The translations under genes and the position numbers were made by a program. Positions 1-33,892 of a stretch of DNA of 64,000 nt are shown here, piece by piece. The stretch spans positions 1,240,001-1,304,000 of the forward strand of contig JBBELK010000060.1 of assembly GCA_037783545.1 (NCBI GenBank), in the 5' to 3' direction. Within the stretch, counting starts at the first letter, position 1. The number at the start of each line of letters is the position of its first letter. Under the pieces are notes generated by a model. That model did no database searches, was not told the origin of the DNA, and saw only the letters and a list, made by a program, of their open reading frames with translations. This DNA comes from Henricia sp. BOLD:AAB3569 (taxonomy: Eukaryota; Echinodermata; Asteroidea; Spinulosida; Echinasteridae).

Positions 1-298
1 CATTTTGGCAGATTTCAGGACTTTCTTTTTTTCCAGGACCGGGGTCATCGGCGCCGACAGGTCTGGTCCTTACAAAATTTACAAAAAATTTACTCTTCCG
101 AAAATGCCTTAGAAATAATCCTAAATGAAAATTTACCATATCCCCAACTCATTTTGGCAGATTTCAGGACTTTCTTTTTTTCCAGGACCGGGGTCATCGG
201 CGCCGACAGGTCCGGTCCTTACAAAATTTACAAAAAATTGACTCTTCCGAAAATGCCCTAGAAATAATCCTAAATGAAAATTTAGCATATCCCCAACT

Positions 299-336
299 CA
301 TTTTGGCAGATTTCAGGACTTTCTTTTTTTCCAACT
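299..336 (+). repeat. 38-bp truncated satellite unit
   Basis: The unit runs from CATTTTGG to TTTTTTTCC and then jumps straight to AACTCATTTTGG of the next unit. It lacks the GC dyad and the AT-rich middle, as expected for a deletion between two CCA(A/G) tracts. Confidence 0.9.
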
Positions 337-634
337 CATTTTGGCAGATTTCAGGACTTTCTTTTTTTCCAGGACCGGGGTCATCGGCGCCGACAGGTCC
401 GGTCCTTACAAAATTTACAAAAAATTGACTCTTCCGAAAATGCCCTAGAAATAATCCTAAATGAAAATTTAGCATATCCCCAACTCATTTTGGCAGATTT
501 CAGGATTTTCTTTTTTTCCAGGACCGTGGTCATCGGCGCCGACAGGTCCGGTCCTTACAAAATTTACAAAAACTCGACTCTTCCGAAAATGCCTTAGAAA
601 TAATCCAAAATGAAAATTTAGCATATCCCCACCT

Positions 635-739
635 CATTTTGGCAGATTTCAGGACTTTCTTTTTTTCCAGGACCGGGGTCATCTGCGCCGAAAATGCCTT
701 AGAAATAATCCTAAATGAAAATTTAGCATATCCCCATCT
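635..739 (+). repeat. 105-bp satellite unit with 44-bp deletion
   Basis: The sequence passes from TCATCTGCGCCG directly to AAAATGCC. It skips the stretch from GACAGGTCC to CTCTTCC, and the breakpoints share GCCGA/TCCGA-like microhomology. Confidence 0.88.
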
Positions 740-1619
740 CATTTTGGCAGATTTCAGGACTTTCTTTTTTTCCACGACCGGGGTCATCGGCGCCGACAGG
801 TCCGATCCTTACAAAATTTACAAAAAATTGACTCTTCCGAAAATGCCTTAGAAATAATCCAAAATGAAAATTTAGCATATCCCCACCTCATTTTGGCAGA
901 TTTCAGGACTTTCTTTTTTTCCAGGACCGGGGTCATCGGCGCCGACAGGTCCGGTCCTTACAAAATTTACAAAAAATCGACTCTTCCGAAAATGGCTTAG
1001 AAATAATCCTAAATGAAAATTTACCATATCCCCATCTCATTTTGGCAGATTTCAGGACTTTCTTTTTTTCCAGGACCGGGGTCATCGGCGCCGACAGGTC
1101 CGGTCCTTACAAAATTTACAAAAAATCGACTCTTCCGAAAATGCCTTAGAAATAATCCTAAATGAAAATTTAGCTATCCCCAACTCATTTTGGCAGATTT
1201 CAGGACTTTCTTTTTTTCCAGGACCGGGGTCATCGGCGCCGACAGGTCCGGTCCTTACAAAATTTACAAAAAATTTACTCTTCCGAAAATGCCTTAGAAA
1301 TAATCCTAAATGAAAATTTACCATATCCCCAACTCATTTTGGCAGATTTCAGGACTTTCTTTTTTTCCAGGACCGGGGTCATCGGTGCCGACAGGTCCGG
1401 TCCTTACAAAATTTACAAAAAATTGACTCTTCCGAAAATGCCTTAGAAATAATCCTAAATGAAAATTTAGCATATCCCCAACTCATTTTGGCAGATTTCA
1501 GGACTTTCTTTTTTTCCAGGACCGGGGTCATCGGCGCCGACAGGTCCGGTCCTTAAAAAATTTACAAAAAATCGACTCTTCCAAAAATGCCTTAGAAATA
1601 ATCCTAAATGAAAATTTAG

Positions 1620-3410
1620 CATATCCCCACCTCATTTTGGCAGATTTCAGGACTTTCTTTTTTTCCAGGACCGGGGTCATCTGCGCCGACAGGTCCGGTC
1701 CTTACAAAAAATTTTTAAAATTGACTCTTCCGAAAATGCCTTAGAAATAATCCTAAATGAAAATTTAGCTATCCCCAACTCATTTTGGCAGATTTCAGGA
1801 CTTTCTTTTTTTCCAGGACCGGGGTCATCGGCGCCGACAGGTCCGGTCCTTACAAAATTTACAAAAAATCGACTCTTCCGAAAATGCCTTAGAAATAATC
1901 CTAAATGAAAAGTTAGCATATCCCCACCTCATTTTGGCAGATTTCAGGACTTTCTTTTTTTCCAGGACCGCGGTCATCGGCGCCGACAGGTCCGGTCCTT
2001 ACAAAATTTACAAAAAATCGACTCTTCCGAAAATGCCTTAGAAATAATCCTAAATGAAAATTTAGCATATCCCCAACTCATTTTGGCAGATTTCAGGACT
2101 TTCTTTTTTTCCAGGACCGGGGTCATCGGCGCCGACAGGTCCGGTCCTTACAAAATTTACAAAAAATCGACTCTTCCGAAAATGCCTTAGAAATAATCCT
2201 AAATGAAAATTTAGCATATCCCCAACTCATTTTGGCAGATTTCAGGACTTTCTTTTTTTCCAGGACCGGGGTCATCGGCGCCGACAGGTCCGGTCCTTAC
2301 AAAATTTACAAAAAATCGACTCTTCCAAAAATGCCTTAGAAATAATCCTAAATGAAAAGTTAGCATATCCCCACCTCATTTTGGCAGATTTCAGGACTTT
2401 CTTTTTTTTCAGGACCGGGGTCATCGGCGCCGACAGGTCCGGTCCTTACAAAATTTACCAAAAATTGACTCTTACAAAAATGCCTTAGAAATAATCCTAT
2501 ATGAAAATTTAGCATATCCCCACCTCATTTTGGCAGATTTCAGGACTTTCTTTTTTTCCAGGACCGGGGTCATCTGCGCCGACAGGTCCGGTCCTTACAA
2601 AAAATTTTTAAAATTGACTCTTCCGAAAATGCCTTAGAAATAATCCTAAATGAAAATTTAGCTATCCCCAACTCATTTTGGCAGATTTCAGGACTTTCTT
2701 TTTTTCCAGGACTGGGGTCATCGGCGCCGACAGGTCCGGTCCTTACAAAATTTACAAAAAATCGACTCTTCCGAAAATGCCTTAGAAATAATCCTAAATG
2801 AAAAGTTAGCATATCCCCACCTCATTTTGGCAGATTTCAGGACTTTCTTTTTTTCCAGGACCGCGGTCATCGGCGCCGACAGGTCCGGTCCTTACAAAAT
2901 TTACAAAAAATCGACTCTTCCGAAAATGCCTTAGAAATAATCCTAAATGAAAATTTAGCATATCCCCAACTCATTTTGGCAGATTTCAGGACTTTCTTTT
3001 TTTCCAGGACCGGGGTCATCGGCGCCGACAGGTCCGGTCCTTACAAAATTTACAAAAAATCGACTCTTCCGAAAATGCCTTAGAAATAATCCTAAATGAA
3101 AATTTAGCATATCCCCAACTCATTTTGGCAGATTTCAGGACTTTCTTTTTTTCCAGGACCGGGGTCATCGGCGCCGACAGGTCCGGTCCTTACAAAATTT
3201 ACAAAAAATCGACTCTTCCAAAAATGCCTTAGAAATAATCCTAAATGAAAAGTTAGCATATCCCCACCTCATTTTGGCAGATTTCAGGACTTTCTTTTTT
3301 TTCAGGACCGGGGTCATCGGCGCCGACAGGTCCGGTCCTTACAAAATTTACCAAAAATTGACTCTTACAAAAATGCCTTAGAAATAATCCTATATGAAAA
3401 TTTAGCATAT
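1620..3410 (+). repeat. Two adjacent 893-bp higher-order repeats (6 units)
   Basis: About 1625-2517 and 2518-3410 are near-identical six-unit blocks. Both carry, in the same order, the TTACAAAAAATTTTTAAAAT variant, the short TAGCTATCC unit, the CCGCGG variant and the TTTTTTTTCAGG variant. One visible difference is ACTGGGG in the second copy against ACCGGGG in the first. Confidence 0.85.
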
Positions 3411-5425
3411 CCCCACCTCATTTTGGCAGATTTCAGGACTTTCTTTTTTTCCAGGACCGGGGTCATCTGCGCCGACAGGTCCGTTCCTTACAAAATTTTT
3501 TAAAAATTGACTCTTCCGAAAATGCCTTAGAAATAATCCTAAATGAAAATTTAGCATATCCCCACCTCATTTTGGCAGATTTCAGGACTTTCTTTTTTTC
3601 CAGGACCGGGGTCATCTACGCCGACAGGTCCGGTCCTTACAAAATTTTAAAAAAATTGACTCTTCCGAAAATGCCTTAGAAATAATCCTAAATGAAAATT
3701 TAGCATATCCCCAACTCATTTTGGCAGATTTCAGGACTTTCTTTTTTTCCAGGACCGTTGTCATCGGCGCCGACAGGTCCGGTCCTTACAAAATTTACAA
3801 AAAATCGACTCTTTGGAAAATGCCTTAGAAATAATCCTAAATGAAAATTTAGCATATCCCCAACTCATTTTGGCAGATTTCAGGACTTTCTTTTTTTCCA
3901 GGACCGTGGTCATCGGCGCCGACAGGTCCGGTCCTTACAAAATTTACAAAAACTCGACTCTTCCGAAAATGCCTTAGAAATAATCCAAAATGAAAATTTA
4001 GCATATCCCCACCTCATTTTGGCAGATTTCAGGACTTTCTTTTTTTCCAGGACCGGGGTCATCTGCGCCGACAGGTCCGGTCCTTACAAAATTTTAAAAA
4101 AATTGACTCTTCCGAAAATGCCTTAGAAATAATCCTAAATGAAAATTTAGCATATCCCCACCTCATTTTAGCAGATTTCAGGACTTTCTTTTTTTCCAGG
4201 ACCGGGGTCATCTACGCCGACAGGTCCGGTCTTTACAAAATTTTAAAAAAATTGACTCTTCCGAAAATGCCTTAGAAATAATCCTAAATGAAAATTTAGC
4301 TATCCCCAACTCATTTTGGCAGATTTCAGGACTTTCTTTTTTTCCAGGACCGGGGTCATCGGCGCCGACAGGTCCGGTCCTTACAAAATTTACAAAAAAT
4401 CGACTCTTCCGAAAATGCCTTAGAAATAATCCTAAATGAAAAGTTAGCATATCCCCACCTCATTTTGGCAGATTTCAGGACTTTCTTTTTTTCCAGGACC
4501 GTGGTCATCGGCGCCGACAGGTCCGGTCCTTACAAAATTTACAAAAAATCGACTCTTCCGAAAATGCCTTAGAAATAATCCTAAATTTAAATTTAGCATA
4601 TCCCCACCTCATTTTGGCAGATTTCAGGACTTTCTTTTTTTCGAGGACCGGGGTCATCGGCGCCGACAGGTCCGGTCCTTAAAAAATTTACAAAAAATCG
4701 ACTCTTCCAAATATGCCTTAGAAATAATCCTAAATGAAAATTTAGCATATCCCCACCTCATTTTGGCAGATTTCAGGACTTTCTTTTTTTCCAGGACCGG
4801 GGTCATCGGCGCCGACAGGTCCGGTCCTTAAAAAATTTACAAAAAATTGACTCTTCCGAAAATGCCTTAGAAATAATCCTAAATGAAAATTTAGCTATCC
4901 CCAACTCATTTTGGCAGATTTCAGGACTTTCTTTTTTTCCAGGACCGGGGTCATCGGCGCCGACAGGTCCGGTCCTTACAAAATTTACAAAAAATCGACT
5001 CTTCCGAAAATGCCTTAGAAATAATCCTAAATGAAAAGTTAGCATATCCCCACCTCATTTTGGCAGATTTCAGGACTTTCTTTTTTTCCAGGACCGTGGT
5101 CATCGGCGCCGACAGGTCCGGTCCTTACAAAATTTACAAAAAATCGACTCTTCCGAAAATGCCTTAGAAATAATCCTAAATGAAAAGTTAGCATATCCCC
5201 ACCTCATTTTGGCAGATTTCAGGACTTTCTTTTTTTCCAGGACCGTGGTCATCGGCGCCGACAGGTCCGGTCCTTACAAAATTTACAAAAAATCGACTCT
5301 TCCGAAAATGCCTTAGAAATAATCCTAAATTAAAATTTAGCATATCCCCACCTCATTTTGGCAGATTTCAGGACTTTCTTTTTTTCCAGGACCGGGGTCA
5401 TCGGCGCCGACAGGTCCGGTCCTTA
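2750..5425 (+). repeat. 18-unit higher-order block, copy 1
   Basis: This block of about 2.68 kb recurs at a constant offset of 5853 bp (8603-11278). Landmarks match in order: CCGCGG at 2861/8714, CTTTGG at 3811/9664, and the TAGCAGATTTC unit near 4168. One base differs in GACAGGTCC versus GACTGGTCC. Confidence 0.85.
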
Positions 5426-6097
5426 AAAAATTTACAAAAAATTGACTCTTCCAAAAATGCCTTAGAAATAATCCTAAATGAAAATTTAGCATATCCCCAC
5501 CTCATTTTGGCAGATTTCAGGACTTTCTTTTTTTCCAGGACCGGGGTCATCGGCGCCGACAGGTCCGGTCCTTAAAAAATTTACAAAAAATTGACTCTTC
5601 CGAAAATGCCTTAGAAATAATCCTAAATGAAAATTTAGCTATCCCCAACTCATTTTGGCAGATTTCAGGACTTTCTTTTTTTCCAGGACCGGGGTCATCG
5701 GCGCCGACAGGTCCGGTCCTTACAAAATTTACAAAAAATCGACTCTTCCGAAAATGCCTTAGAAATAATCCTAAATGAAAAGTTAGCATATCCCCACCTC
5801 ATTTTGGCAGATTTCAGGACTTTCTTTTTTTCCAGGACCGTGGTCATCGGCGCCGACAGGTCCGGTCCTTACAAAATTTACAAAAAATTGACTCTTCCGA
5901 AAATGCCTTAGAAATAATCCTAAATGAAAAGTTAGCATATCCCCACCTCATTTTGGCAGATTTCAGGACTTTCTTTTTTTCCAGGACCGTGGTCATCGGC
6001 GCCGACAGGTCCGGTCCTTACAAAATTTACAAAAAATCGACTCTTCCGAAAATGCCTTAGAAATAATCCTAAATTAAAATTTAGCATATCCCCACCT

Positions 6098-6269
6098 CAT
6101 TTTGGCAGATTTCAGGACTTTCTTTTTTTCCAGGACCGGGGTCATCGGCGCCGACAGGTCCGGGGTCATCGGCGCCGACAGGTCCGGTCCTTAAAAAATT
6201 TACAAAAAATTGACTCTTCCGAAAATGCCTTAGAAATAATCCTAAATGAAAATTTAGCTATCCCCAACT
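6098..6269 (+). repeat. Satellite unit with duplicated GC dyad
   Basis: This unit is 172 bp. The 24-bp block GGGGTCATCGGCGCCGACAG plus GTCC occurs twice in tandem, giving two TCGGCGCCGA palindromes. Confidence 0.9.
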
Positions 6270-7609
6270 CATTTTGGCAGATTTCAGGACTTTCTTTTTT
6301 TCCAGGACCGGGGTCATCGGCGCCGACAGGTCCGGTCCTTACAAAATTTACAAAAAATCGACTCTTCCGAAAATGCCTTAGAAATAATCCTAAATGAAAA
6401 GTTAGCATATCCCCACCTCATTTTGGCAGATTTCTGGACTTTCTTTTTTTCCAGGACCGTGGTCATCGGCGCCGACAGGTACGGTCCTTACAAAATTTAC
6501 AAAAAATCGACTCTTCCGAAAATGCCTTAGAAATAATCCTAAATGAAAAGTTAGCATATCCCCACCTCATTTTGGCAGATTTCAGGACTTTCTTTTTTTC
6601 CAGGACCGTGGTCATCGGCGCCGACAGGTCCGGTCCTTACAAAATTTACAAAAAATCGACTCTTCCGAAAATGCCTTAGAAATAATCCTAAATTAAAATT
6701 TAGCATATCCCCACCTGATTTTGGCAGATTTCAGGACTTTCTTTTTTTCCAGGACCGGGGTCATCGGCGCCGACAGGTCCGGTCCTTAAAAAATTTACAA
6801 AAAATTGACTCTTCCAAAAATGCCTTAGAAATAATCCTAAATGAAAATTTAGCATATCCCCACCTCATTTTGGCAGATTTCAGGACTTTCTTTTTTTCCA
6901 GGACCGGGGTCATCGGCGCCGACAGGTCCGGTCCTTAAAAAATTTACAAAAAATTGACTCTTCCGAAAATGCCTTAGAAATAATCCTAAATGAAAATTTA
7001 GCTATCCCCAACTCATTTTGGCAGATTTCAGGACTTTCTTTTTTTCCAGGACCGGGGTCATCGGCGCCGACAGGTCCGGTCCTTAAAAAATTTACAAAAA
7101 ATTGACTCTTCCAAAAATGCCTTAGAAATAATCCTAAATGAAAATTTAGCATATCCCCACCTCATTTTGGCAGATTTCAGGACTTTCTTTTTTTCCAGGA
7201 CCGGGGTCATCGGCGCCGACAGGTCCGGTCCTTAAAAAATTTACAAAAAATCGACTCTTCCGAAAATGCCTTAGAAATAATCCTAAATGAAAAGTTAGCA
7301 TATCCCCACCTCATTTTGGCAGATTTCAGGACTTTCTTTTTTTCCAGGACCGTGGTCATCGGCGCCGACAGGTCCGGTCCTTACAAAATTTACAAAAAAT
7401 TGACTCTTCCGAAAATGCCTTAGAAATAATCCTAAATGAAAAGTTAGCATATCCCCACCTCATTTTGGCAGATTTCAGGACTTTCTTTTTTTCCAGGACC
7501 GTGGTCATCGGCGCCGACAGGTCCGGTCCTTACAAAATTTACAAAAAATCGACTCTTCCGAAAATGCCTTAGAAATAATCCTAAATTAAAATTTAGCATA
7601 TCCCCACCT

Positions 7610-7782
7610 CATTTTGGCAGATTTCAGGACTTTCTTTTTTTCCAGGACCGGGGTCATCGGCGCCGACAGGTCCGGGGTCATCGGCGCCGACAGGTCCGGT
7701 CCTTACAAAATTTACAAAAAATCGACTCTTCCGAAAATGCCTTAGAAATAATCCTAAATGAAAAGTTAGCATATCCCCACCT
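7610..7782 (+). repeat. Second unit with duplicated GC dyad
   Basis: This unit is 173 bp and has the same 24-bp tandem duplication as the unit at 6098. The shared breakpoint suggests the two copies descend from one event and were spread by block duplication. Confidence 0.88.
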
Positions 7783-8602
7783 CATTTTGGCAGATTTCAG
7801 GACTTTCTTTTTTTCCAGGACCGTGGTCATCGGCGCCGACAGGTCCGGTCCTTACAAAATTTACAAAAAATCGACTCTTCCGAAAATGCCTTAGAAATAA
7901 TCCTAAATGAAAAGTTAGCATATCCCCACCTCATTTTGGCAGATTTCAGGACTTTCTTTTTTTCCAGGACCGTGGTCATCGGCGCCGACAGGTCCGGTCC
8001 TTACAAAATTTACAAAAAATCGACTCTTCCGAAAATGCCTTAGAAATAATCCTAAATTAAAATTTAGCATATCCCCACCTGATTTTGGCAGATTTCAGGA
8101 CTTTCTTTTTTTCCAGGACCGGGGTCATCGGCGCCGACAGGTCCGGTCCTTAAAAAATTTACAAAAAATTGACTCTTCCAAAAATGCCTTAGAAATAATC
8201 CTAAATGAAAATTTAGCATATCCCCACCTCATTTTGGCAGATTTCAGGACTTTCTTTTTTTCCAGGACCGGGGTCATCGGCGCCGACAGGTCCGGTCCTT
8301 TAAAAATTTACAAAAAATTGACTCTTCCGAAAATGCCTTAGAAATAATCCTAAATGAAAATTTAGCTATCCCCAACTCATTTTGGCAGATTTCAGGACTT
8401 TCTTTTTTTCCAGGACCGGGGTCATCGGCGCCGACAGGTCCGGTCCTTAAAAAATTTACAAAAAATTGACTCTTCCAAAAATGCCTTAGAAATAATCCTA
8501 AATGAAAATTTAGCATATCCCCACCTCATTTTGGCAGATTTCAGGACTTTCTTTTTTTCCAGGACCAGGGTCATCGGCGCCGACAGGTCCGGTCCTTAAA
8601 AA

Positions 8603-11278
8603 ATTTACAAAAAATCGACTCTTCCGAAAATGCCTTAGAAATAATCCTAAATGAAAAGTTAGCATATCCCCACCTCATTTTGGCAGATTTCAGGACTTTC
8701 TTTTTTTCCAGGACCGCGGTCATCGGCGCCGACAGGTCCGGTCCTTACAAAATTTACAAAAAATCGACTCTTCCGAAAATGCCTTAGAAATAATCCTAAA
8801 TGAAAATTTAGCATATCCCCAACTCATTTTGGCAGATTTCAGGACTTTCTTTTTTTCCAGGACCGGGGTCATCGGCGCCGACAGGTCCGGTCCTTACAAA
8901 ATTTACAAAAAATCGACTCTTCCGAAAATGCCTTAGAAATAATCCTAAATGAAAATTTAGCATATCCCCAACTCATTTTGGCAGATTTCAGGACTTTCTT
9001 TTTTTCCAGGACCGGGGTCATCGGCGCCGACAGGTCCGGTCCTTACAAAATTTACAAAAAATCGACTCTTCCAAAAATGCCTTAGAAATAATCCTAAATG
9101 AAAAGTTAGCATATCCCCACCTCATTTTGGCAGATTTCAGGACTTTCTTTTTTTTCAGGACCAGGGTCATCGGCGCCGACAGGTCCGGTCCTTACAAAAT
9201 TTACCAAAAATTGACTCTTACAAAAATGCCTTAGAAATAATCCTATATGAAAATTTAGCATATCCCCACCTCATTTTGGCAGATTTCAGGACTTTCTTTT
9301 TTTCCAGGACCGGGGTCATCTGCGCCGACTGGTCCGTTCCTTACAAAATTTTTTAAAAATTGACTCTTCCGAAAATGCCTTAGAAATAATCCTAAATGAA
9401 AATTTAGCATATCCCCACCTCATTTTGGCAGATTTCAGGACTTTCTTTTTTTCCAGGACCGGGGTCATCTACGCCGACAGGTCCGGTCCTTACAAAATTT
9501 TAAAAAAATTGACTCTTCCGAAAATGCCTTAGAAATAATCCTAAATGAAAATTTAGCATATCCCCAACTCATTTTGGCAGATTTCAGGACTTTCTTTTTT
9601 TCCAGGACCGTTGTCATCGGCGCCGACAGGTCCGGTCCTTACAAAATTTACAAAAAATCGACTCTTTGGAAAATGCCTTAGAAATAATCCTAAATGAAAA
9701 TTTAGCATATCCCCAACTCATTTTGGCAGATTTCAGGACTTTCTTTTTTTCCAGGACCGTGGTCATCGGCGCCGACAGGTCCGGTCCTTACAAAATTTAC
9801 AAAAACTCGACTCTTCCGAAAATGCCTTAGAAATAATCCAAAATGAAAATTTAGCATATCCCCACCTCATTTTGGCAGATTTCAGGACTTTCTTTTTTTC
9901 CAGGACCGGGGTCATCTGCGCCGACAGGTCCGGTCCTTACAAAATTTTAAAAAAATTGACTCTTCCGAAAATGCCTTAGAAATAATCCTAAATGAAAATT
10001 TAGCATATCCCCACCTCATTTTAGCAGATTTCAGGACTTTCTTTTTTTCCAGGACCGGGGTCATCTACGCCGACAGGTCCGGTCTTTACAAAATTTTAAA
10101 AAAATTGACTCTTCCGAAAATGCCTTAGAAATAATCCTAAATGAAAATTTAGCTATCCCCAACTCATTTTGGCAGATTTCAGGACTTTCTTTTTTTCCAG
10201 GACCGGGGTCATCGGCGCCGACAGGTCCGGTCCTTACAAAATTTACAAAAAATCGACTCTTCCGAAAATGCCTTAGAAATAATCCTAAATGAAAAGTTAG
10301 CATATCCCCACCTCATTTTGGCAGATTTCAGGACTTTCTTTTTTTCCAGGACCGTGGTCATCGGCGCCGACAGGTCCGGTCCTTACAAAATTTACAAAAA
10401 ATCGACTCTTCCGAAAATGCCTTAGAAATAATCCTAAATTTAAATTTAGCATATCCCCACCTCATTTTGGCAGATTTCAGGACTTTCTTTTTTTCCAGGA
10501 CCGGGGTCATCGGCGCCGACAGGTCCGGTCCTTAAAAAATTTACAAAAAATCGACTCTTCCAAAAATGCCTTAGAAATAATCCTAAATGAAAATTTAGCA
10601 TATCCCCACCTCATTTTGGCAGATTTCAGGACTTTCTTTTTTTCCAGGACCGGGGTCATCGGCGCCGACAGGTCCGGTCCTTAAAAAATTTACAAAAAAT
10701 TGACTCTTCCGAAAATGCCTTAGAAATAATCCTAAATGAAAATTTAGCTATCCCCAACTCATTTTGGCAGATTTCAGGACTTTCTTTTTTTCCAGGACCG
10801 GGGTCATCGGCGCCGACAGGTCCGGTCCTTACAAAATTTACAAAAAATCGACTCTTCCGAAAATGCCTTAGAAATAATCCTAAATGAAAAGTTAGCATAT
10901 CCCCACCTCATTTTGGCAGATTTCAGGACTTTCTTTTTTTCCAGGACCGTGGTCATCGGCGCCGACAGGTCCGGTCCTTACAAAATTTACAAAAAATCGA
11001 CTCTTCCGAAAATGCCTTAGAAATAATCCTAAATGAAAAGTTAGCATATCCCCACCTCATTTTGGCAGATTTCAGGACTTTCTTTTTTTCCAGGACCGTG
11101 GTCATCGGCGCCGACAGGTCCGGTCCTTACAAAATTTACAAAAAATCGACTCTTCCGAAAATGCCTTAGAAATAATCCTAAATTAAAATTTAGCATATCC
11201 CCACCTCATTTTGGCAGATTTCAGGACTTTCTTTTTTTCCAGGACCGGGGTCATCGGCGCCGACAGGTCCGGTCCTTA
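8603..11278 (+). repeat. 18-unit higher-order block, copy 2
   Basis: This is the second copy of the block at 2750-5425. Identity is lost on the left near 8597 (CCTTAAAAAA versus CCTTACAAAA) and on the right near 11279, again at CCTTACA versus CCTTAAA. Confidence 0.85.
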
Positions 11279-11981
11279 CAAAATTTACAAAAAATCGACT
11301 CTTCCGAAAATGCCTTAGAAATAATCCTAAATGAAAAGTTAGCATATCCCCACCTCATTTTGGCAGATTTCAGGACTTTCTTTTTTTTCAGGACCGGGGT
11401 CATCGGCGCCGACAGGTCCGGTCCTTACAAAATTTACCAAAAATTGACTCTTACAAAAATGCCTTAGAAATAATCCTATATGAAAATTTAGCATATCCCC
11501 ACCTCATTTTGGCAGATTTCAGGACTTTCTTTTTTTCCAGGACCGGGGTCATCTGCGCCGACAGGTCCGTTCCTTACAAAAATTTTTAAAAATTGACTCT
11601 TCCGAAAATGCCTTAGAAATAATCCTAAATGAAAATTTAGCATATCCCCACCTCATTTTGGCAGATTTCAGGACTTTCTTTTTTTCCAGGACCGGGGTCA
11701 TCTACGCCGACAGGTCCGGTCCTTACAAAATTTTAAAAAAATTGACTCTTCCGAAAATGCCTTAGAAATAATCCTAAATGAAAATTTAGCATATCCCCAC
11801 CTCATTTTGGCAGATTTCAGGACTTTCTTTTTTTCCAGGACCGGGGTCATCTGCGCCGACAGGTCCGTTCCTTACAAAAATTTTTAAAAATTGACTCTTC
11901 CGAAAATGCCTTAGAAATAATCCTAAATGAAAATTTAGCATATCCCCACCTCATTTTGGCAGATTTCAGGACTTTCTTTTT

Positions 11982-22600: not shown

Positions 22601-24459
22601 TACAAAAAATCGACTCTTCCGAAAATGCCTTAGAAATAATCCTAAATGAAAAGTTAGCATATCCCCACCTCATTTTGGCAGATTTCAGGACTTTCTTTTT
22701 TTCCAGGACCGTGGTCATCGGCGCCGACAGGTCCGGTCCTTACAAAATGTACCAAAAAATCGACTCTTCCGAAAATGCCTTAGAAATAATCCTAAATGAA
22801 AATTTAGCATATATCCCCAACTCATTTTGGCAGATTTCAGGACTTTCTTTTTTTCCAGGACCGGGGTCATCGGCGCCGACAGGTCCGGTCCTTAAAAAAT
22901 TTACAAAAAATCGACTCTTCCAAAAATGCCTTAGAAATAATCCTAAATGAAAAGTTAGCATATCCCACCTCATTTTGGCAGATTTCAGGACTTTTTTTTT
23001 TTTCAGGACCGGGGTCATCGGCGCCGACAGGTCCGGTCCTTACAAAATTTACCAAAAATTACTCTTACGAAAATGCCTTAGAAATAATCCTATATGAAAA
23101 TTTAGCATATCCCCACCTCATTTTGGCAGATTTCAGGACTTTCTTTTTTTCCAGGACCGGGGTCATCTGCGCCGACAGGTCCGGTCCCTACAAAATTTAC
23201 CAAAAATTGACTCTTACGAAAATGCCTTAGAAATAATCCTATATGAAAATTTAGCATATCCCCACCTCATTTTGGCAGATTTCAGGACTTTCTTTTTTTC
23301 CAGGACCGGGGTCATCTGCGCCGACAGGTCCGGTCCTTACAAAATTCACAAAAAATTGACTCTTCCGAAAATGCCTTAGAAATAATCCTAAATGAAAATT
23401 TAGCATATATCCCCAACTCATTTTGGCAGATTTCAGGACTTTCTTTTTTTCCAGGACCGGGGTCATCGGCGCCGACAGGTCCGGTCCTTACAAAATTTAC
23501 AAAAAATCGACTGTTCCGAAAATGCCTTAGAAATAATCCTAAATGAAAATTTAGCTATCCCCAACTCATTTTGGCAGATTTCAGGACTTTCTTTTTTTCC
23601 AGGACCAGGGTCATCGGCACCGACAGGTCCGGTCCTTACAAAATTTACAAAAAATCGACTCTTCCGAAAATGCCTTAGAAATAATCCTAAATGAAAAGTT
23701 AGCATATCCCCACCTCATTTTGGCAGATTTCAGGACTTTCTTTTTTTCCAGGACCGTGGTCATCGGCGCCGACAGGTCCGGTCCTTAAAAAATTTACCAA
23801 AAAATCGACTCTTCCGAAAATGCCTTAGAAATAATCCTAAATGAAAATTTAGCATATCCCCAACTCATTTTGGCAGATTTCAGGACTTTCTTTTTTTCCA
23901 GGACCGGGGTCATCGGCGCCGACAGGTCCGGTCCTTACAAAATTTACAAAAAATCGACTCTTCCGAAAATGCCTTAGAAATAATCCTAAATGAAAAGTTA
24001 GCATATCCCCACCTCATTTTGGCAGATTTCAGGACTTTCTTTTTTTCCAGGACCGTGGTCATCGGCGCCGACAGGTCCGGTCCTTACAAAATTTACAAAA
24101 AATCGACTCTTCCAAAAATGCCTCAGAAATAATCCTAAATGAAAATTTAGCATATCCCCACCTCATTTTGGCAGATTTCAGGACTTTCTTTTTTTCCAGG
24201 ACCGGGGTCATCTGCGCCGACAGGTCCGGTCCTTACAACATTTTTTTTAAATTGACTCTTCCGAAAATGCCTTAGAAATAATCCTAAATGAAAATTTAGC
24301 TATCCCCAACTCATTTTGGCAGATTTCAGGACTTTCTTTTTTTCCAGGACCGGGGTCATCGGCGCCGACAGGTCCGGTCCTTACAAAATTTACAAAAAAT
24401 CGACTCTTCCGAAAATGCCTTAGAAATAATCCTAAATGAAAAGTTAGCATATCCCCACC

Positions 24460-25947
24460 TCATTTTGGCAGATTTCAGGACTTTCTTTTTTTCCAGGACC
24501 GTGGTCATCGGCGCCGACAGGTCCGGTCCTTACAAAATTTACCAAAAAATCGACTCTTCCGAAAATGCCTTAGAAATAATCCTAAATGAAAATTTAGCAT
24601 ATCCCCAACTCATTTTGGCAGATTTCAGGACTTTCTTTTTTTCCAGGACCGGGGTCATCGGCGCCGACAGGTCCGGTCCCCAAAAAATTTACAAAAAATC
24701 GACTCTTCCAAAAATGCCTTAGAAATAATCCTAAATGAAAAGTTAGCATATCCCACCTCATTTTGGCAGATTTCAGGACTTTTTTTTTTTTCAGGACCGG
24801 GGTCATCGGCGCCGACAGGTCCGGTCCTTACAAAATTTACCAAAAATTACTCTTACGAAAATGCCTTAGAAATAATCCTATATGAAAATTTAGCATATCC
24901 CCACCTCATTTTGGCAGATTTCAGGACTTTCTTTTTTTCCAGGACCGGGGTCATCTGCGCCGACAGGTCCGGTCCTTACAAAATTTACCAAAAATTGACT
25001 CTTACGAAAATGCCTTAGAAATAATCCTATATGAAAATTTAGCATATCCCCACCTCATTTTGGCAGATTTCAGGACTTTCTTTTTTTCCAGGACCGGGGT
25101 CATCTGCGCCGACAGGTCCGGTCCTTACAAAATTCACAAAAAATTGACTCTTCCGAAAATGCCTTAGAAATAATCCTAAATGAAAATTTAGCATATCCCC
25201 ACCTCATTTTGGCAGATTTCAGGACTTTCTTTTTTTCCAGGACCGTGGTCATCGGCGCCGACAGGTCCGGTCCTTACAAAATTTACCAAAAAATCGACTC
25301 TTCCGAAAATGCCTTAGAAATAATCCTAAATGAAAATTTAGCATATCCCCAACTCATTTTGGCAGATTTCAGGACTTTCTTTTTTTCCAGGACCGGGGTC
25401 ATCGGCGCCGACAGGTCCGGTCCCCAAAAAATTTACAAAAAATCGACTCTTCCAAAAATGCCTTAGAAATAATCCTAAATGAAAAGTTAGCATATCCCAC
25501 CTCATTTTGGCAGATTTCAGGACTTTTTTTTTTTTCAGGACCGGGGTCATCGGCGCCGACAGGTCCGGTCCTTACAAAATTTACCAAAAATTACTCTTAC
25601 GAAAATGCCTTAGAAATAATCCTATATGAAAATTTAGCATATCCCCACCTCATTTTGGCAGATTTCAGGACTTTCTTTTTTTCCAGGACCGGGGTCATCT
25701 GCGCCGACAGGTCCGGTCCTTACAAAATTTACCAAAAATTGACTCTTACGAAAATGCCTTAGAAATAATCCTATATGAAAATTTAGCATATCCCCACCTC
25801 ATTTTGGCAGATTTCAGGACTTTCTTTTTTTCCAGGACCGGGGTCATCTGCGCCGACAGGTCCGGTCCTTACAAAATTCACAAAAAATTGACTCTTCCGA
25901 AAATGCCTTAGAAATAATCCTAAATGAAAATTTAGCATATATCCCCA
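24460..25947 (+). repeat. Two adjacent 744-bp higher-order repeats (5 units)
   Basis: 24460-25203 and 25204-25947 share an identical order of variants, including the unusual GGTCCCCAAAAAATTTAC and the T12-A form of the T tract (GGACTTTTTTTTTTTTCAGG). Confidence 0.85.
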
Positions 25948-28010
25948 ACTCATTTTGGCAGATTTCAGGACTTTCTTTTTTTCCAGGACCGGGGTCATCG
26001 GCGCCGACAGGTCCGGTCCTTACAAAATTTACAAAAAATCGACTGTTCCGAAAATGCCTTAGAAATAATCCTAAATGAAAATTTAGCTATCCCCAACTCA
26101 TTTTGGCAGATTTCAGGACTTTCTTTTTTTCCAGGACCAGGGTCATCGGCGCCGACAGGTCCGGTCCTTACAAAATTTACAAAAAATCGACTCTTCCAAA
26201 AATGCCTTAGAAATAATCCTAAATGAAAAGTTAGCATATCCCCACCTCATTTTGGCAGATTTCAGGACTTTCTTTTTTTTCCAGGACCGTGGTCATCGGC
26301 GCCGACAGGTCCGGTCCTTAAAAAATTTACCAAAAAATCGACTCTTCCGAAAATGCCTTAGAAATAATCCTAAATGAAAATTTAGCATATCCCCAACTCA
26401 TTTTGGCAGATTTCAGGACTTTCTTTTTTTCCAGGACCGGGGTCATCGGCGCCGACAGGTCCGGTCCTTAAAGAATTTACAAAAAATCGACTCTTCCAAA
26501 AATGCCTTAGAAATAATCCTAAATGAAAAGTTAGCATATCCCACCTCATTTTGGCAGATTTCAGGACTTTCTTTTTTTTCAGGACCGGGGTCATCGGCGC
26601 CAACAGGTCCGGTCCTTACAAAATTTACCAAAAATTGACTCTTACGAAAATGCCTTAGAAATAATCCTATATGAAAATTTAGCATATCCCCACCTCATTT
26701 TGGCAGATTTCAGGACTTTCTTTTTTTCCAGGACCGGGGTCATCTGCGCCGAGAGGTCCGGTCCTTACAAAATTTTTTAAAAATTGACTCTTCCGAAAAT
26801 GCCTTAGAAATAATCCTAAATGAAAATTTAGCATATCCCCACCTCATTTTGGCAGATTTCAGGACTTTCTTTTTTTCCAGGACCGGGGTCATCTGCGCTG
26901 ACAGGTCCGGTCCTTACAAAATTCACAAAAAATTGACTCTTCCGAAAATGCCTTAGAAATAATCCTAAATGAAAATTTACCATATCCCCAACTCATTTTG
27001 GCAGATTTCAGGACTTTCTTTTTTTCCAGGACCGGGGTCATCGGCGCCGACAGGTCCGGTCCTTACAAAATTTACAAAAAATCGACTCTTCCAAAAATGC
27101 CTCAGAAATAATCCTAAATGAAAATTTAGCATATCCCCACCTCATTTTGGCAGATTTCAGGACTTTCTTTTTTTCCAGGACCGGGGTCATCTGCGCCGAC
27201 AGGTCCGGTCCTTACAAAAAATTTTTAAAATTGACTCTTCCGAAAATGCCTTAGAAATAATCCTAAATGAAAATTTAGCTATCCCCAACTCATTTTGGCA
27301 GATTTCAGGACTTTCTTTTTTTCCAGGACCGGGGTCATCGGCGCCGACAGGTCCGGTCCTTACAAAATTTACAAAAAATCGACTCTTCCGAAAATGCCTT
27401 AGAAATAATCCTAAATGAAAAGTTAGCATATCCCCACCTCATTTTGGCAGATTTCAGGACTTTCTTTTTTTCCAGGACCGTGGTCATCGGCGCCGACAGG
27501 TCCGGTCCTTACAAAATTTACCAAAAAATCGACTCTTCCGAAAATGCCTTAGAAATAATCCTAAATGAAAATTTAGCATATCCCCAACTCATTTTGGCAG
27601 ATTTCAGGACTTTCTTTTTTTCCAGGACCGGGGTCATCGGCGCCGACAGGTCCGGTCCTTACAAAATTCACAAAAAATTGACTCTTCCGAAAATGCCTTA
27701 GAAATAATCCTAAATGAAAATTTAGCATATATCCCCAACTCATTTTGGCAGATTTCAGGACTTTCTTTTTTTCCAGGACCGGGGTCATCAACGCCGACAG
27801 GTCCGGTCCTTACAAAATTTACAAAAAATCGACTGTTCCGAAAATGCCTTAGAAATAATCCTAAATGAAAATTTAGCTATCCCCAACTCATTTTGGCAGA
27901 TTTCAGGACTTTCTTTTTTTCCAGGACCAGGGTCATCGGCGCCGACAGGTCCGGTCCTTACAAAATTTACAAAAAATCGACTCTTCCGAAAATGCCTTAG
28001 AAATAATCCT
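25430..28010 (+). repeat. About 2.6-kb higher-order block, copy 1
   Basis: The block repeats at 29602-32182, offset 4172-4173 bp (28 units). Shared marks are the ATATATCCCC insertion unit, GACTGTTCC, GCCAACAGG and TCATCAACGCC. The one-base offset change is an extra T in the tract near 26275. Confidence 0.85.
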
Positions 28011-29813
28011 AAATGAAAAGTTAGCATATCCCCACCTCATTTTGGCAGATTTCAGGACTTTCTTTTTTTCCAGGACCGTGGTCATCGGCGCCGACAGGTC
28101 CGGTCCTTACAAAATTTACAAAAAATCGACTCTTCCGAAAATGCCTTAGAAATAATCCTATATGAAAATTTAGCATATCCCCACCTCATTTTGGCAGATT
28201 TCAGGACTTTCTTTTTTTCCAGGACCGGGGTCATCTGCGCCGAGAGGTCCGGTCCTTACAAAATTTTTTAAAAATTGACTCTTCCGAAAATGCCTTAGAA
28301 ATAATCCTAAATGAAAATTTAGCATATCCCCACCTCATTTTGGCAGATTTCAGGACTTTCTTTTTTTCCAGGACCGGGGTCATCGGCGCCGACAGGTCCG
28401 GTCCTTAAAAAATTTACAAAAAATCGACTCTTCCAAAAATGCCTTAGAAATAATCCTAAATGAAAAGTTAGCATATCCCACCTCATTTTGGCAGATTTCA
28501 GGACTTTTTTTTTTTTCAGGACCGGGGTCATCGGCGCCGACAGGTCCGGTCCTTACAAAATTTACCAAAAATTACTCTTACGAAAATGCCTTAGAAATAA
28601 TCCTATATGAAAATTTAGCATATCCCCACCTCATTTTGGCAGATTTCAGGACTTTCTTTTTTTCCAGGACCGTGGTCATCGGCGCCGACAGGTCCGGTCC
28701 TTACAAAATTTACCAAAAAATCGACTCTTCCGAAAATGCCTTAGAAATAATCCTAAATGAAAATTTAGCATATCCCCAACTCATTTTGGCAGATTTCAGG
28801 ACTTTCTTTTTTTCCAGGACCGGGGTCATCGGCGCCGACAGGTCCGGTCCTTACAAAATTCACAAAAAATTGACTCTTCCGAAAATGCCTTAGAAATAAT
28901 CCTAAATGAAAATTTAGCATATATCCCCAACTCATTTTGGCAGATTTCAGGACTTTCTTTTTTTCCAGGACCGGGGTCATCAACGCCGACAGGTCCGGTC
29001 CTTACAAAATTTACAAAAAATCGACTGTTCCGAAAATGCCTTAGAAATAATCCTAAATGAAAATTTAGCTATCCCCAACTCATTTTGGCAGATTTCAGGA
29101 CTTTCTTTTTTTCCAGGACCAGGGTCATCGGCGCCGACAGGTCCGGTCCTTACAAAATTTACAAAAAATCGACTCTTCCGAAAATGCCTTAGAAATAATC
29201 CTAAATGAAAAGTTAGCATATCCCCACCTCATTTTGGCAGATTTCAGGACTTTCTTTTTTTCCAGGACCGTGGTCATCGGCGCCGACAGGTCCGGTCCTT
29301 ACAAAATTTACAAAAAATCGACTCTTCCGAAAATGCCTTAGAAATAATCCTATATGAAAATTTAGCATATCCCCACCTCATTTTGGCAGATTTCAGGACT
29401 TTCTTTTTTTCCAGGACCGGGGTCATCTGCGCCGAGAGGTCCGGTCCTTACAAAATTTTTTAAAAATTGACTCTTCCGAAAATGCCTTAGAAATAATCCT
29501 AAATGAAAATTTAGCATATCCCCACCTCATTTTGGCAGATTTCAGGACTTTCTTTTTTTCCAGGACCGGGGTCATCGGCGCCGACAGGTCCGGTCCTTAA
29601 AAAATTTACAAAAAATCGACTCTTCCAAAAATGCCTTAGAAATAATCCTAAATGAAAAGTTAGCATATCCCACCTCATTTTGGCAGATTTCAGGACTTTT
29701 TTTTTTTTCAGGACCGGGGTCATCGGCGCCGACAGGTCCGGTCCTTACAAAATTTACCAAAAATTACTCTTACGAAAATGCCTTAGAAATAATCCTATAT
29801 GAAAATTTAGCAT
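27430..29813 (+). repeat. Two adjacent 1192-bp higher-order repeats (8 units)
   Basis: 27430-28621 and 28622-29813 appear identical wherever I compared them, including TCATCAACGCC at 27786/28978 and GCCGAGAGG at 28239/29431. Exactly eight 149-bp units fit 1192 bp. Confidence 0.87.
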
Positions 29814-32182
29814 ATCCCCACCTCATTTTGGCAGATTTCAGGACTTTCTTTTTTTCCAGGACCGGGGTCATCTGCGCCGACAGGTCCGGTCCTTACAAAA
29901 TTTACCAAAAATTGACTCTTACGAAAATGCCTTAGAAATAATCCTATATGAAAATTTAGCATATCCCTACCTCATTTTGGCAGATTTCAGGACTTTCTTT
30001 TTTTCCAGGACCGGGGTCATCTGCGCCGACAGGTCCGGTCCTTACAAAATTCACAAAAAATTGACTCTTCCGAAAATGCCTTAGAAATAATCCTAAATGA
30101 AAATTTAGCATATATCCCCAACTCATTTTGGCAGATTTCAGGACTTTCTTTTTTTCCAGGACCGGGGTCATCGGCGCCGACAGGTCCGGTCCTTACAAAA
30201 TTTACAAAAAATCGACTGTTCCGAAAATGCCTTAGAAATAATCCTAAATGAAAATTTAGCTATCCCCAACTCATTTTGGCAGATTTCAGGACTTTCTTTT
30301 TTTCCAGGACCAGGGTCATCGGCGCCGACAGGTCCGGTCCTTACAAAATTTACAAAAAATCGACTCTTCCAAAAATGCCTTAGAAATAATCCTAAATGAA
30401 AAGTTAGCATATCCCCACCTCATTTTGGCAGATTTCAGGACTTTCTTTTTTTCCAGGACCGTGGTCATCGGCGCCGACAGGTCCGGTCCTTAAAAAATTT
30501 ACCAAAAAATCGACTCTTCCGAAAATGCCTTAGAAATAATCCTAAATGAAAATTTAGCATATCCCCAACTCATTTTGGCAGATTTCAGGACTTTCTTTTT
30601 TTCCAGGACCGGGGTCATCGGCGCCGACAGGTCCGGTCCTTAAAAAATTTACAAAAAATCGACTCTTCCAAAAATGCCTTAGAAATAATCCTAAATGAAA
30701 AGTTAGCATATCCCACCTCATTTTGGCAGATTTCAGGACTTTCTTTTTTTTCAGGACCGGGGTCATCGGCGCCAACAGGTCCGGTCCTTACAAAATTTAC
30801 CAAAAATTGACTCTTACGAAAATGCCTTAGAAATAATCCTATATGAAAATTTAGCATATCCCCACCTCATTTTGGCAGATTTCAGGACTTTCTTTTTTTC
30901 CAGGACCGGGGTCATCTGCGCCGACAGGTCCGGTCCTTACAAAATTTTTTAAAAATTGACTCTTCCGAAAATGCCTTAGAAATAATCCTAAATGAAAATT
31001 TAGCATATCCCCACCTCATTTTGGCAGATTTCAGGACTTTCTTTTTTTCCAGGACCGGGGTCATCTGCGCTGACAGGTCCGGTCCTTACAAAATTCACAA
31101 AAAATTGACTCTTCCGAAAATGCCTTAGAAATAATCCTAAATGAAAATTTACCATATCCCCAACTCATTTTGGCAGATTTCAGGACTTTCTTTTTTTCCA
31201 GGACCGGGGTCATCGGCGCCGACAGGTCCGGTCCTTACAAAATTTACAAAAAATCGACTCTTCCAAAAATGCCTCAGAAATAATCCTAAATGAAAATTTA
31301 GCATATCCCCACCTCATTTTGGCAGATTTCAGGACTTTCTTTTTTTCCAGGACCGGGGTCATCTGCGCCGACAGGTCCGGTCCTTACAAAAAATTTTTAA
31401 AATTGACTCTTCCGAAAATGCCTTAGAAATAATCCTAAATGAAAATTTAGCTATCCCCAACTCATTTTGGCAGATTTCAGGACTTTCTTTTTTTCCAGGA
31501 CCGGGGTCATCGGCGCCGACAGGTCCGGTCCTTACAAAATTTACAAAAAATCGACTCTTCCGAAAATGCCTTAGAAATAATCCTAAATGAAAAGTTAGCA
31601 TATCCCCACCTCATTTTGGCAGATTTCAGGACTTTCTTTTTTTCCAGGACCGTGGTCATCGGCGCCGACAGGTCCGGTCCTTACAAAATTTACCAAAAAA
31701 TCGACTCTTCCGAAAATGCCTTAGAAATAATCCTAAATGAAAATTTAGCATATCCCCAACTCATTTTGGCAGATTTCAGGACTTTCTTTTTTTCCAGGAC
31801 CGGGGTCATCGGCGCCGACAGGTCCGGTCCTTACAAAATTCACAAAAAATTGACTCTTCCGAAAATGCCTTAGAAATAATCCTAAATGAAAATTTAGCAT
31901 ATATCCCCAACTCATTTTGGCAGATTTCAGGACTTTCTTTTTTTCCAGGACCGGGGTCATCAACGCCGACAGGTCCGGTCCTTACAAAATTTACAAAAAA
32001 TCGACTGTTCCGAAAATGCCTTAGAAATAATCCTAAATGAAAATTTAGCTATCCCCAACTCATTTTGGCAGATTTCAGGACTTTCTTTTTTTCCAGGACC
32101 AGGGTCATCGGCGCCGACAGGTCCGGTCCTTACAAAATTTACAAAAAATCGACTCTTCCGAAAATGCCTTAGAAATAATCCT
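29602..32182 (+). repeat. About 2.6-kb higher-order block, copy 2
   Basis: This is the partner of 25430-28010. Its right end lies next to the palindrome arm, so the youngest-looking large duplication is at the inverted end of the array. Confidence 0.85.
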
Positions 32183-32862
32183 AAATGAAAATTTAGCATA
32201 TCCCCACCTCATTTTGGCAGATTTCAGGACTTTCTTTTTTTCCAGGACCGGGGTCATCTGCGCCGACAGGTCCTGTCCTTACAAAATTTTTAAAAAATTG
32301 ACTTCCGAAAATGCCTTAGAAATAATCCTAAATGAAAATTTACCATATCCCCAACTCATTTTGGCAGATTTCAGGACTTTCTTTTTTTCCAGGACCGGGG
32401 TCATCTGCGCCGACAGGTCCGGTCCTTACAAAATTTTTAAAAAAAATCGACTCTTCCGAAAATGCCTTTTTTTAAAAATTTTGTAAGGACCGGACCTGTC
32501 GGCGCAGATGACCCCGGTCCTGGAAAAAAAGAAAGTCCTGAAATCTGCCAAAATGAGTTGGGGATATGGTAAATTTTCATTTAGGATTATTTCTAAGGCA
32601 TTTTCGGAAGTCAATTTTTTTAAAATTTTGTAAGGACAGGACCTGTCGGCGCAGATGACCCCGGTCCTGGAAAAAAAGAAAGTCCTGAAATCTGCCAAAA
32701 TGAGGTGGGGATATGCTAAATTTTCATTTAGGATTATTTCTAAGGCATTTTCGGAAGAGTCAATTTTTTGTAAATTTTGTAAGGACTGGACCTGTCGGCG
32801 CCGATGACCCCGGTCCTGGAAAAAAAGAAAGTCCTGAAATCTGCCAAAATGAGTTGGGGATA
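32050..32862. repeat. 813-bp palindrome at the array boundary
   Basis: The arms are 32050-32446 and 32467-32862 with a 20-nt loop. Only about four differences are visible by eye across roughly 396 bp of arm: a one-base shift in a T/A run, two CG/CA-type changes, and CCTGG versus CCCGG. The arms would form a long hairpin in single strands. Confidence 0.92.
32467..32862 (-). repeat. Inverted terminal segment of the satellite array
   Basis: After a 20-nt spacer (32447-32466) the satellite continues in reverse orientation for about 2.7 units and stops at 32862, where non-repetitive sequence begins (GGTACAGTGTACATGA). The inverted part matches the reverse complement of 32050-32446 almost base for base. 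It even repeats private variants such as the 2-nt-shorter GACTTCCG and TCCTGTCC. It is therefore an inverted duplication of the array end and not an independent older array. Confidence 0.95.
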
Positions 32863-33558
32863 CCGGTACAGTGTACATGATACAGTATGCATGTACGTGC
32901 ACAGTTCATTGATCGCATCGAGCGCTAGTGATAGTCGAAACGCCATCTACCAAAAGTAGAGCTTGCAGACTTAAGAGTGCCCGAGTTCGAAGCATTCATT
33001 TTGACATGAATCCACACTTGGGTCATCCATTCCAAATTGGATTAGGAATATGCCAGCCGGGAAATTTATTCAGGTCACGAAATTAATTAATTTATCGTTT
33101 TGGGAGATAATTATGCATGTATTGTATATTGTAAGAAAACATTTTAGTTACCCGATTCACATTCGGGTTGGTTGTAGAATTAAGATTGGACAGAAAAATT
33201 TATATACAAAAAACAAAATTTCGCCCGTGTTATAAGAATAGGCGTTTCAGTCGTGTTGTGCCCCGAAGCTCAGATTTTACCTTTGCTGCGAGACTTACAT
33301 AGTCTATAGTCCAACTACAGCTACATTGTAACTGTAGTCATGAATCGAACTTGTCTAATGTTGTACATTTGATTAAAAACCATGCCATATGCACCAATCT
33401 GCATCGCTTGTCAGAATAGAACTTATTCAGAGTTGCCGAAAGCCAGGGTAAAAATTGATATTGCTAAAACCTAAGGCTTGATAACTGATGTGACCCAACA
33501 GTGAATTTTAGTAATGCAGCAAATGTCACAGAATTGTTTGCTGTTGGCATCAAATAAG
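32863..33558. other. Unique sequence after the satellite, nothing recognised
   Basis: This is AT-rich single-copy-looking DNA. I saw no convincing exon, RNA gene or repeat, and no tropomodulin N-terminal exon. A 61-aa ORF at 33050-33235 has no recognisable motif. Confidence 0.6.
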
Positions 33559-33892
33559 GCCAAACAAAATAAATGGTGCGTTTACGGTAACGGCATAAAA
33601 AAAATCCAGGTAGGTAGGTAGGAAAATAATTTTATTTTGTCATTTGTTTACACATTTCAGTTCATGCATTTGTGTGTTGTTTTGCAATGTTTGAAACTCA
33701 CTATAAACACTATTAACCATGTTCATGTACAAGTGTAGAAAATGTTATGTTCGTTGGAAATTATTGCAAATAGTGCTCATTTAAAATTATCAACTTGAAA
33801 ATTGGCAATAAAAAGTTTGAGGTCGGCAATTTGGCCTAAAAAATTCCAGGTAGGTCGGGTTACCGTAAACACACCATTTATTTTGTTTGGTC
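33559..33892. mobile_element. MITE with about 33-bp TIRs
   Basis: The left end reads CCAAACAAAATAAATGGTGC then GTTTACGGTAAC. The right end is its reverse complement with one change. An internal AATTCCAGGTAGGT motif appears twice in direct orientation (near 33603 and 33843). The 334-bp element lacks any coding capacity. Confidence 0.82.

What the first reader, a model, noticed from the sequence alone, without database searches (positions are those of the whole stretch)
1..32862. A satellite of over 32 kb, possibly within a gene intron
The array borders single-copy DNA that, 1.3 kb further on, starts the LRR exons of tropomodulin. Exons for the first half of that protein are not found to the right of the array. 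If the gene is whole, its N-terminal exons lie left of the array and the satellite is intronic and transcribed. Otherwise the gene is cut off by the array, or the assembly is misjoined.
Basis: partly seen in the sequence, partly recalled or inferred. Interest (0 to 1): 0.75.

Follow-up and report, generated by a model that had tools for sequence, protein, structure and literature searches.

The report
Satellite array inside a tropomodulin intron
A 36.5-kb block of repeated satellite DNA sits cleanly inside one intron of an echinoderm's intact-looking tropomodulin gene, apparently inserted into a copy of a dispersed repeat there, so the gene should have to transcribe and splice out about 240 satellite copies to make its protein.

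Summary
The array is real: a 149-bp unit, about 240 copies, 36,553 bp. It starts 3.7 kb left of the window and ends at window 32865. The missing tropomodulin exons lie just left of it, same strand, same contig. Nine exons (all introns GT-AG) join in frame into a 347-residue tropomodulin that aligns to TMOD1 without a gap at the array. The genome-wide tropomodulin-domain search reported only this gene. The gene is therefore whole and the satellite fills 94% of a 39.0-kb intron; transcription and read support are untested.

New here: the two flanks of the array are halves of one dispersed repeat, contiguous in 11 of 11 other copies read, a paralogous empty site. TACCGGTA stands at both junctions. 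The two array ends share orientation and close in unit phase to within 0-1 bp, as expected if a circle opened inside one monomer. Reinsertion of excised satellite DNA is the favoured, inferred mechanism. Two other arrays carry small insertions at the same TA of the unit (TA-CCGG-TA, TA-CTG-TA), which also leaves room for a TA-targeting transposase. The sense strand holds 231 acceptor-like sites. Intronic satellites are known: a new member of a known kind.

The parts
1..32467 (+). Satellite array, sense-oriented 149-bp units (continues left of the window to C60:1237204, window -2796)
   Evidence: TRF; strand runs; monomers (230 of 235 kept, mean pairwise identity 95.5%, 106 distinct)
32468..32860 (-). 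Right end of array, units in inverted orientation (about 2.6 units); another '-' block of 869 bp forms the left end outside the window (C60:1236318-1237186)
32861..32868 (.). Junction palindrome TACCGGTA; the same 8 bp stand at the left junction (C60:1236310-1236317)
32866..33307 (+). Right half of the dispersed repeat interrupted by the array (left half C60:1236095-1236312); contiguous in other copies
33554..33897 (.). Unrelated short dispersed element with about 37-bp inverted ends (MITE-like) in the same intron
   Evidence: 39 other places among the 40 scored, 95-97% identity, and inverted matches between query 555-592 and 860-897
34120..34227 (+). Tropomodulin coding exon 6 (first exon after the array)
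   Evidence: phase 0 with exon 5 at C60:1234980-1235110
36187..36330 (+). Tropomodulin coding exon 7
41832..41976 (+). Tropomodulin coding exon 8
43793..43824 (+). Tropomodulin coding exon 9 with stop codon
   Evidence: alignment to TMOD1 runs to residue 342

Best explanation
A 36.5-kb array of a genome-wide 149-bp satellite sits inside a 39.0-kb intron of the only tropomodulin gene that the search found in this echinoderm assembly (shown). It interrupts a copy of a dispersed repeat whose other copies read are uninterrupted, so it arrived there as an insertion (shown by paralogous empty sites). The favoured mechanism is reinsertion of satellite DNA excised elsewhere, probably a circle opened inside one '-' monomer at a TACCGGTA and joined to the target's GTAC by short homology, with local amplification before or after (inferred, about 0.45). 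The gene stays functional because the whole array lies in one intron and is removed by splicing (inferred from the intact gene; not observed).
For: Gene: (nine exons, eight GT-AG introns, phases consistent, PF03250 E 6.2e-53, TMOD1 E 2.3e-83, no gap at the intron). Insertion: left and right flank match the same other copies contiguously; in 11 of 11 copies read (L054, L056-L065) the halves join without insert, 8 as GTACAGTG, 2 GTAAAGTG, 1 TTACAGTG, none with CCGG. Circle-like geometry: both array ends are '-', and the right end (..GGGGA-TA) followed by the left start (TA-GCTAAA..) closes one unit to within 0-1 bp. A monomer with TACCGGTA at exactly that unit position exists on C114 (GGGGATACCGGTATGGTAAA). 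Spread: 4,685 + 5,882 matches to a 29-bp unit piece genome-wide, 0 in reversed controls. The variant GGATAGCTAAATTTTCATTTAGG is on C60 (34), C3 (18) and C141 (8) only, among 67 matches listed in full.
Against: No RNA, read-depth or second-individual data. The duplicated bases can also be parsed as a 2-bp TA or 4-bp GTAC target duplication with short inverted ends (CCGGTA/TACCGG or CGGTA/TACCG), or the target copy may itself have carried TACCGGTA; sequence alone does not separate these. Four monomers on C808 carry TA-CTG-TA at the same TA, so this TA takes small insertions by a route that need not involve circles. The 5 whole '-' monomers of C60 lack the shorter GATAGCT variant that would close the unit perfectly (0 of 3 left, 0 of 2 right). 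Array-private monomers mean much of the 36.5 kb could have grown in place. None of the 5 other array edges printed (C141 left and right, C3, C54, C308) has TACCGGTA at its boundary.
Confidence: 0.8

Rival explanations
1. The insert went in by a transposase-like reaction at TA (or GTAC): TA duplication, CCGGTA/TACCGG inverted ends, satellite as cargo. TACCGGTA and the C808 TA-CTG-TA would then be scars of TA-targeting elements of Tc1/mariner type (that such elements leave TA-nnn-TA scars is recalled, not looked up).
For: Inverted ends of 5-6 bp and a target duplication fit occupied and empty sites. The same TA of the unit holds CCGG on C114 and CTG in four C808 monomers.
Against: Left-end pattern found exactly once (67 matches up to 3 mismatches, none other with CGGTA). 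Right-end pattern exact once; single-mismatch places are 1 on C114 and 4 on C808, both inside arrays; two 2-mismatch places on C38 and C37 are not satellite. No reading frame was sought inside the array. Phase closure and same orientation of the ends are not predicted.
Confidence: 0.2
2. A small satellite fragment was captured during break repair in the intron and the 36 kb grew in place by unequal exchange and template switching.
For: 106 distinct of 230 monomers, few shared with other arrays; internal block duplications of 1.0-2.7 kb at 99.6-100% identity; irregular strand-switch junctions.
Against: Does not by itself explain phase closure with TACCGGTA at both junctions, but is compatible with a small circle as first step.
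Confidence: 0.3
3. Assembly misjoin or chimera places satellite in a gene that is really uninterrupted.
For: Satellite arrays are a usual place for misassembly; no read data here. Contig C955 shows a tandem mitochondrial concatemer, so some contigs may have artefacts.
Against: Both halves of one gene and of one dispersed repeat lie on the two sides in order and orientation. The longest exact internal repeat is 1,646 bp, within reach of long reads. A false insertion of satellite into an intact locus remains possible.
Confidence: 0.05

Closest known systems
Satellite-filled giant introns of Drosophila kl-3 and kl-5 (PMC6508621, abstract read)
   Same: Tandem satellite inside introns of protein-coding genes, transcribed there
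   Different: Those introns hold megabases of simple satellite in genes of the spermatocyte programme; here 36.5 kb of a 149-bp satellite in one intron of a cytoskeletal gene, transcription untested
Dispersed TCAST satellite elements in Tribolium introns (PMC3411249 and PMC5844308, passages read)
   Same: Satellite family scattered in euchromatin, many copies in introns; excision as circles and recombination between motifs in circles and matching genomic motifs proposed there
   Different: One TCAST group is partial monomers or arrays up to tetramers, the other transposon-like; here about 240 units, with both junctions and uninterrupted paralogous target copies readable
Interstitial telomeric repeats inserted at break repair in mammals (PMC7215372, start of abstract in a search listing)
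   Same: Tandem repeat insertion shown by comparison with repeat-less loci
   Different: Telomeric repeats described there as short stretches; orthologous rather than paralogous empty sites

Membership tests
Satellite DNA | Long head-to-tail array of a near-identical unit, homogenised locally | tested here: met
Satellite DNA | Same unit in many arrays across the genome | tested here: met
   (4,685 + 5,882 matches; 0 in reversed control)
Gene with an intronic satellite | Exons of one gene on both sides, same strand, in order and in phase | tested here: met
Gene with an intronic satellite | Satellite transcribed and spliced out of pre-mRNA | not testable with these tools
   no RNA reads available
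Tropomodulin | N-terminal tropomodulin domain plus C-terminal LRR part, full length | tested here: met
TIR DNA transposon | Target duplication and inverted ends | tested here: inconclusive
   TA or GTAC duplication and 5-6 bp inverted ends fit but have other explanations
TIR DNA transposon | Other copies with the same two ends | tested here: not met
Reintegrated satellite circle (eccDNA) | Ends contiguous in unit phase and same orientation | tested here: met
   (closure to within 0-1 bp)
Reintegrated satellite circle (eccDNA) | Circular molecules of this satellite exist | not testable with these tools
   needs circle sequencing

The most novel reading that the evidence does not exclude
One event moved a 36-kb satellite circle into the intron by recombination at a shared TACCGGTA/GTAC motif, and the array now acts on the gene: its sense strand lays 231 polypyrimidine-YAG acceptor-like sites (typically 14 unbroken pyrimidines before the AG, against 1 to 5 in the gene's own eight acceptors) between the exon 5 donor and the exon 6 acceptor, so tropomodulin output depends on suppressing these decoys and could vary with array length between individuals.
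Probability: 0.12. Interest if true: 0.65.

Novelty: new member of a known kind. Interest (0 to 1): 0.42.

Why it matters
It is a readable case of how satellite DNA enters a gene: both junctions, uninterrupted paralogous target copies, a monomer variant with the same junction palindrome and an intact host gene are in hand. It makes the proposed circle route testable at base level, and offers a natural test of how splicing copes with over 200 acceptor-like sites in one intron.

Tried and rejected
Gene cut off by the array: rejected, N-terminal exons found left of it. A transposon family with these two ends: no second copy found (C808 monomers and the C38 and C37 places looked at). The listing shows the first 100 of 506 matches, best first, so places with 0-1 mismatch are all shown but most 2-mismatch places are not. 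Strong RNA fold of the unit: z -0.24 and -1.27 for one monomer, nothing beyond shuffles. Higher-order repeat period: no strong minimum at monomer offsets 1-59 (lowest 6.03 differences at offset 5, against 6.7 on average). Inverted partner of TACCGGTA-led ends at L050-L052: a first test was misplaced for L051; the repeat found none for L050 and L052 and one weak partner (up to 4 mismatches of 18, 946 bp away) for L051.

Acceptor idea: it rests on one motif of one unit, noticed after the fact. Over -20 to -6 the unit has 11 of 15 pyrimidines, the gene's acceptors 8 to 12, so by that measure it is not stronger. ATTAAA occurs 10 times and GTAAG 11 times in the sense strand of the array, so it is not free of weak poly(A) or donor-like words. 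Absence of AATAAA and GTRAGT says little, since a random 149-bp unit would usually lack each (my estimate from the flank counts).

A megablast comparison of long blocks between arrays gave empty output, probably because the scoring options were not accepted; not counted and not repeated. Monomer counts for contigs with overlapping loci are inflated. Paper searches with nothing on point in what was listed: TACATGTA, excision footprint; satellite insertion with target duplication; tropomodulin with satellite.
Full report
Check of the observation. The window is G000:C60:1240001-1304000 of a 740.7-Mb, 2,104-contig genome. Tandem Repeats Finder gives a 149-bp unit in 213 copies over window 688-32468, with further rows covering 1-691 and 32468-32862. 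Fetching 8 kb to the left shows the array starting at C60:1236313; the insert is 36,553 bp, 36,436 bp of it covered by unit matches. Strand runs are '-' 1236318-1237186, '+' 1237204-1272467, '-' 1272468-1272862. Of 235 anchor-cut '+' monomers, 230 are 140-160 bp long (5 dropped as irregular); mean pairwise identity 95.5%, 106 distinct, no strong favoured monomer offset from 1 to 59. The longest exact internal repeat is 1,646 bp and the longest near-exact one 2,679 bp.

The gene. A genome-wide search with PF03250 gives 3 matches, all on C60, '+' strand, left of the window: profile 2-38, 38-94 and 89-132. Splice-consistent exons are C60:1229399-1229514, 1231520-1231679, 1232804-1232926, 1233618-1233710, 1234980-1235110, then across the array 1274120-1274227, 1276187-1276330, 1281832-1281976 and 1283793-1283824 (window 34120-34227, 36187-36330, 41832-41976, 43793-43824). 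All eight introns are GT-AG, all phases agree, and the product is 347 residues plus stop. I placed the exons by eye on translated sequence and recalled tropomodulin features, so exon edges are predictions. The product aligns to TMOD1 chains over residues 4-342 (E 2.3e-83) with no gap at residues 205/206, where the array-bearing intron lies, and carries the PF03250 domain (E 6.2e-53). The intron is 39,009 bp, of which the insert is 93.7%.

The organism. COX1 copies lie 16,221 bp apart on C955. Read with the echinoderm code, AAA gives asparagine at positions that I recall as conserved, AGA serine and TGA tryptophan. The species was not identified.

An insertion with empty sites. The 668 bp left of the array and the 668 bp right of it each match many other places; the left match ends and the right match begins at the junction (40 candidates scored in each, of 1,761 and 521). 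I read 11 copies (L054, L056-L065), 9 of them in both lists and 2 (C24, C8) in the right-flank list: in 11 of 11 the two halves are contiguous; the joint reads GTACAGTG in 8, GTAAAGTG in 2 and TTACAGTG in 1, never with CCGG. The occupied site reads CGACGTACCGGTA-GCTAAA ... GGGGA-TACCGGTACAGTG. Relative to the empty sites the extra bases can be parsed three ways: TA duplication with CCGGTA/TACCGG ends, GTAC duplication with CGGTA/TACCG ends, or an 8-bp TACCGGTA shared by donor and a target copy that already had it.

Why a circle is favoured. The two ends of the array have the same orientation, and the right end followed by the left start restores one unit to within 0-1 bp; a randomly cut linear fragment would do so in roughly 2% of cases (my estimate, 3 of 149 phases). 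One monomer on C114 carries TACCGGTA at that very unit position, the only place found by a dedicated pattern. The 5 whole '-' monomers of C60 do not carry the one-base-shorter variant that would make the closure perfect. TACCGGTA is not very rare: 2 in 39.5 kb of non-array C60 sequence, 10 in 72 kb when other loci are added, against about 1 expected, but three of those loci were fetched for this word; the pattern TACCGGTAGCTAAATTTTC with up to 3 mismatches has 164 + 183 matches against 61 + 82 for its reversed control. Other array edges printed (C141 both sides, C3, C54, C308) show no TACCGGTA; C141 and C3 share one flank and so a common edge.

Four C808 loci read GGGGATACTGTATGCTAAA: the same TA of the unit is there followed by CTG and a second TA. 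With C114 (TA-CCGG-TA) this makes two kinds of small insertion at one TA. This looks like scars of TA-targeting elements (Tc1/mariner type, recalled), and raises the chance that TACCGGTA at the C60 junctions reflects such chemistry rather than homology. The C808 four may be copies of one change.

Where the satellite came from. A 29-bp unit piece has 4,685 + 5,882 matches with up to 3 mismatches and none in the reversed control, about 1.6 Mb if each is one unit (inference). The variant GGATAGCTAAATTTTCATTTAGG is found on C60 (34), C3 (18) and C141 (8); the other 7 of the 67 listed matches are the C60 left end, 5 near variants on C3 and one place on C99. In sampled monomers the shorter variant is 33 of 230 on C60 '+', 41 of 169 on C3, 15 of 63 on C141, and 0 in C365, C308, C54, C194, C114 and C808 (of 118, 20, 20, 41, 9, 72; overlapping loci inflate several counts). 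Exact monomers are rarely shared: one distinct monomer with C3 (1 C60 copy) and one with C54 (19 C60 copies), none with the other six. So C60, C3 and C141 appear to share an origin, followed by local growth.

What it may do. On the sense strand of the insert there are 231 runs of at least 11 pyrimidines ending in YAG, 9 on its antisense strand; the 39.5 kb of flank, which include the gene's eight acceptors, have 0 sense and 4 antisense. GTRAGT and AATAAA are absent on both strands; ATTAAA occurs 10 and 2 times, GTAAG 11 and 213 times (sense, antisense). The unit has 14 unbroken pyrimidines before the AG, the gene's acceptors 1 to 5, but over -20 to -6 the unit (11 of 15) is within the range of the gene's acceptors (8 to 12). 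If an array acceptor were used in the frame of exon 5, translation would end after 6 to 173 codons (median 74 over 231 sites). This is a prediction, with no evidence of use.

Known precedents. Satellite-containing introns are transcribed in Drosophila kl-3 and kl-5 (PMC6508621, abstract). In Tribolium, satellite elements sit in introns, and recombination between motifs in circles and matching genomic motifs was proposed to disperse them (PMC3411249, PMC5844308, passages). The present locus is a new member of that kind, with unusually readable junctions.

Noticed in passing
non-array C60 sequence around the window (39.5 kb): The palindrome TACATGTA is the commonest 8-mer there, 46 copies; over 72 kb of non-satellite loci 68 copies against about 2 expected from base composition. 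Six neighbouring pairs lie 6 bases apart. TACATGTA is, from recall, the excision scar of Tc1, so it may record transposon excisions.
   Followed up: partly
L076-L079 (C808), e.g. L076 1510: Satellite monomers with TA-CTG-TA at the TA where C114 has TA-CCGG-TA.
   Followed up: partly
C114:1671987 (L075 1500-1530): TACCGGTA inside an array where two satellite blocks that look different by eye meet.
   Followed up: partly
window 53816-56797: Open frame of 993 codons with reverse transcriptase and endonuclease domains (PF00078, PF14529): a non-LTR retrotransposon.
   Followed up: partly
window 33554-33897: MITE-like element with about 37-bp inverted ends, 95-97% identical to 39 other scored places.
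   Followed up: no
window 40848-41499: 325-bp tandem duplication, two copies, 99% matches, in the intron before exon 8.
   Followed up: no
window 60816-61364: GAGGGCA-type minisatellite, about 78 copies of 7 bp.
   Followed up: no
G000:C955:7592-41374: Three COX1 copies 16,221 bp apart: mitochondrial DNA assembled as a concatemer, it seems.
   Followed up: no
L048 (C141) 1347-1408: A degenerate relative of the unit (77% over 62 bp) near the C141 array, suggesting an older dispersed ancestor repeat.
   Followed up: no
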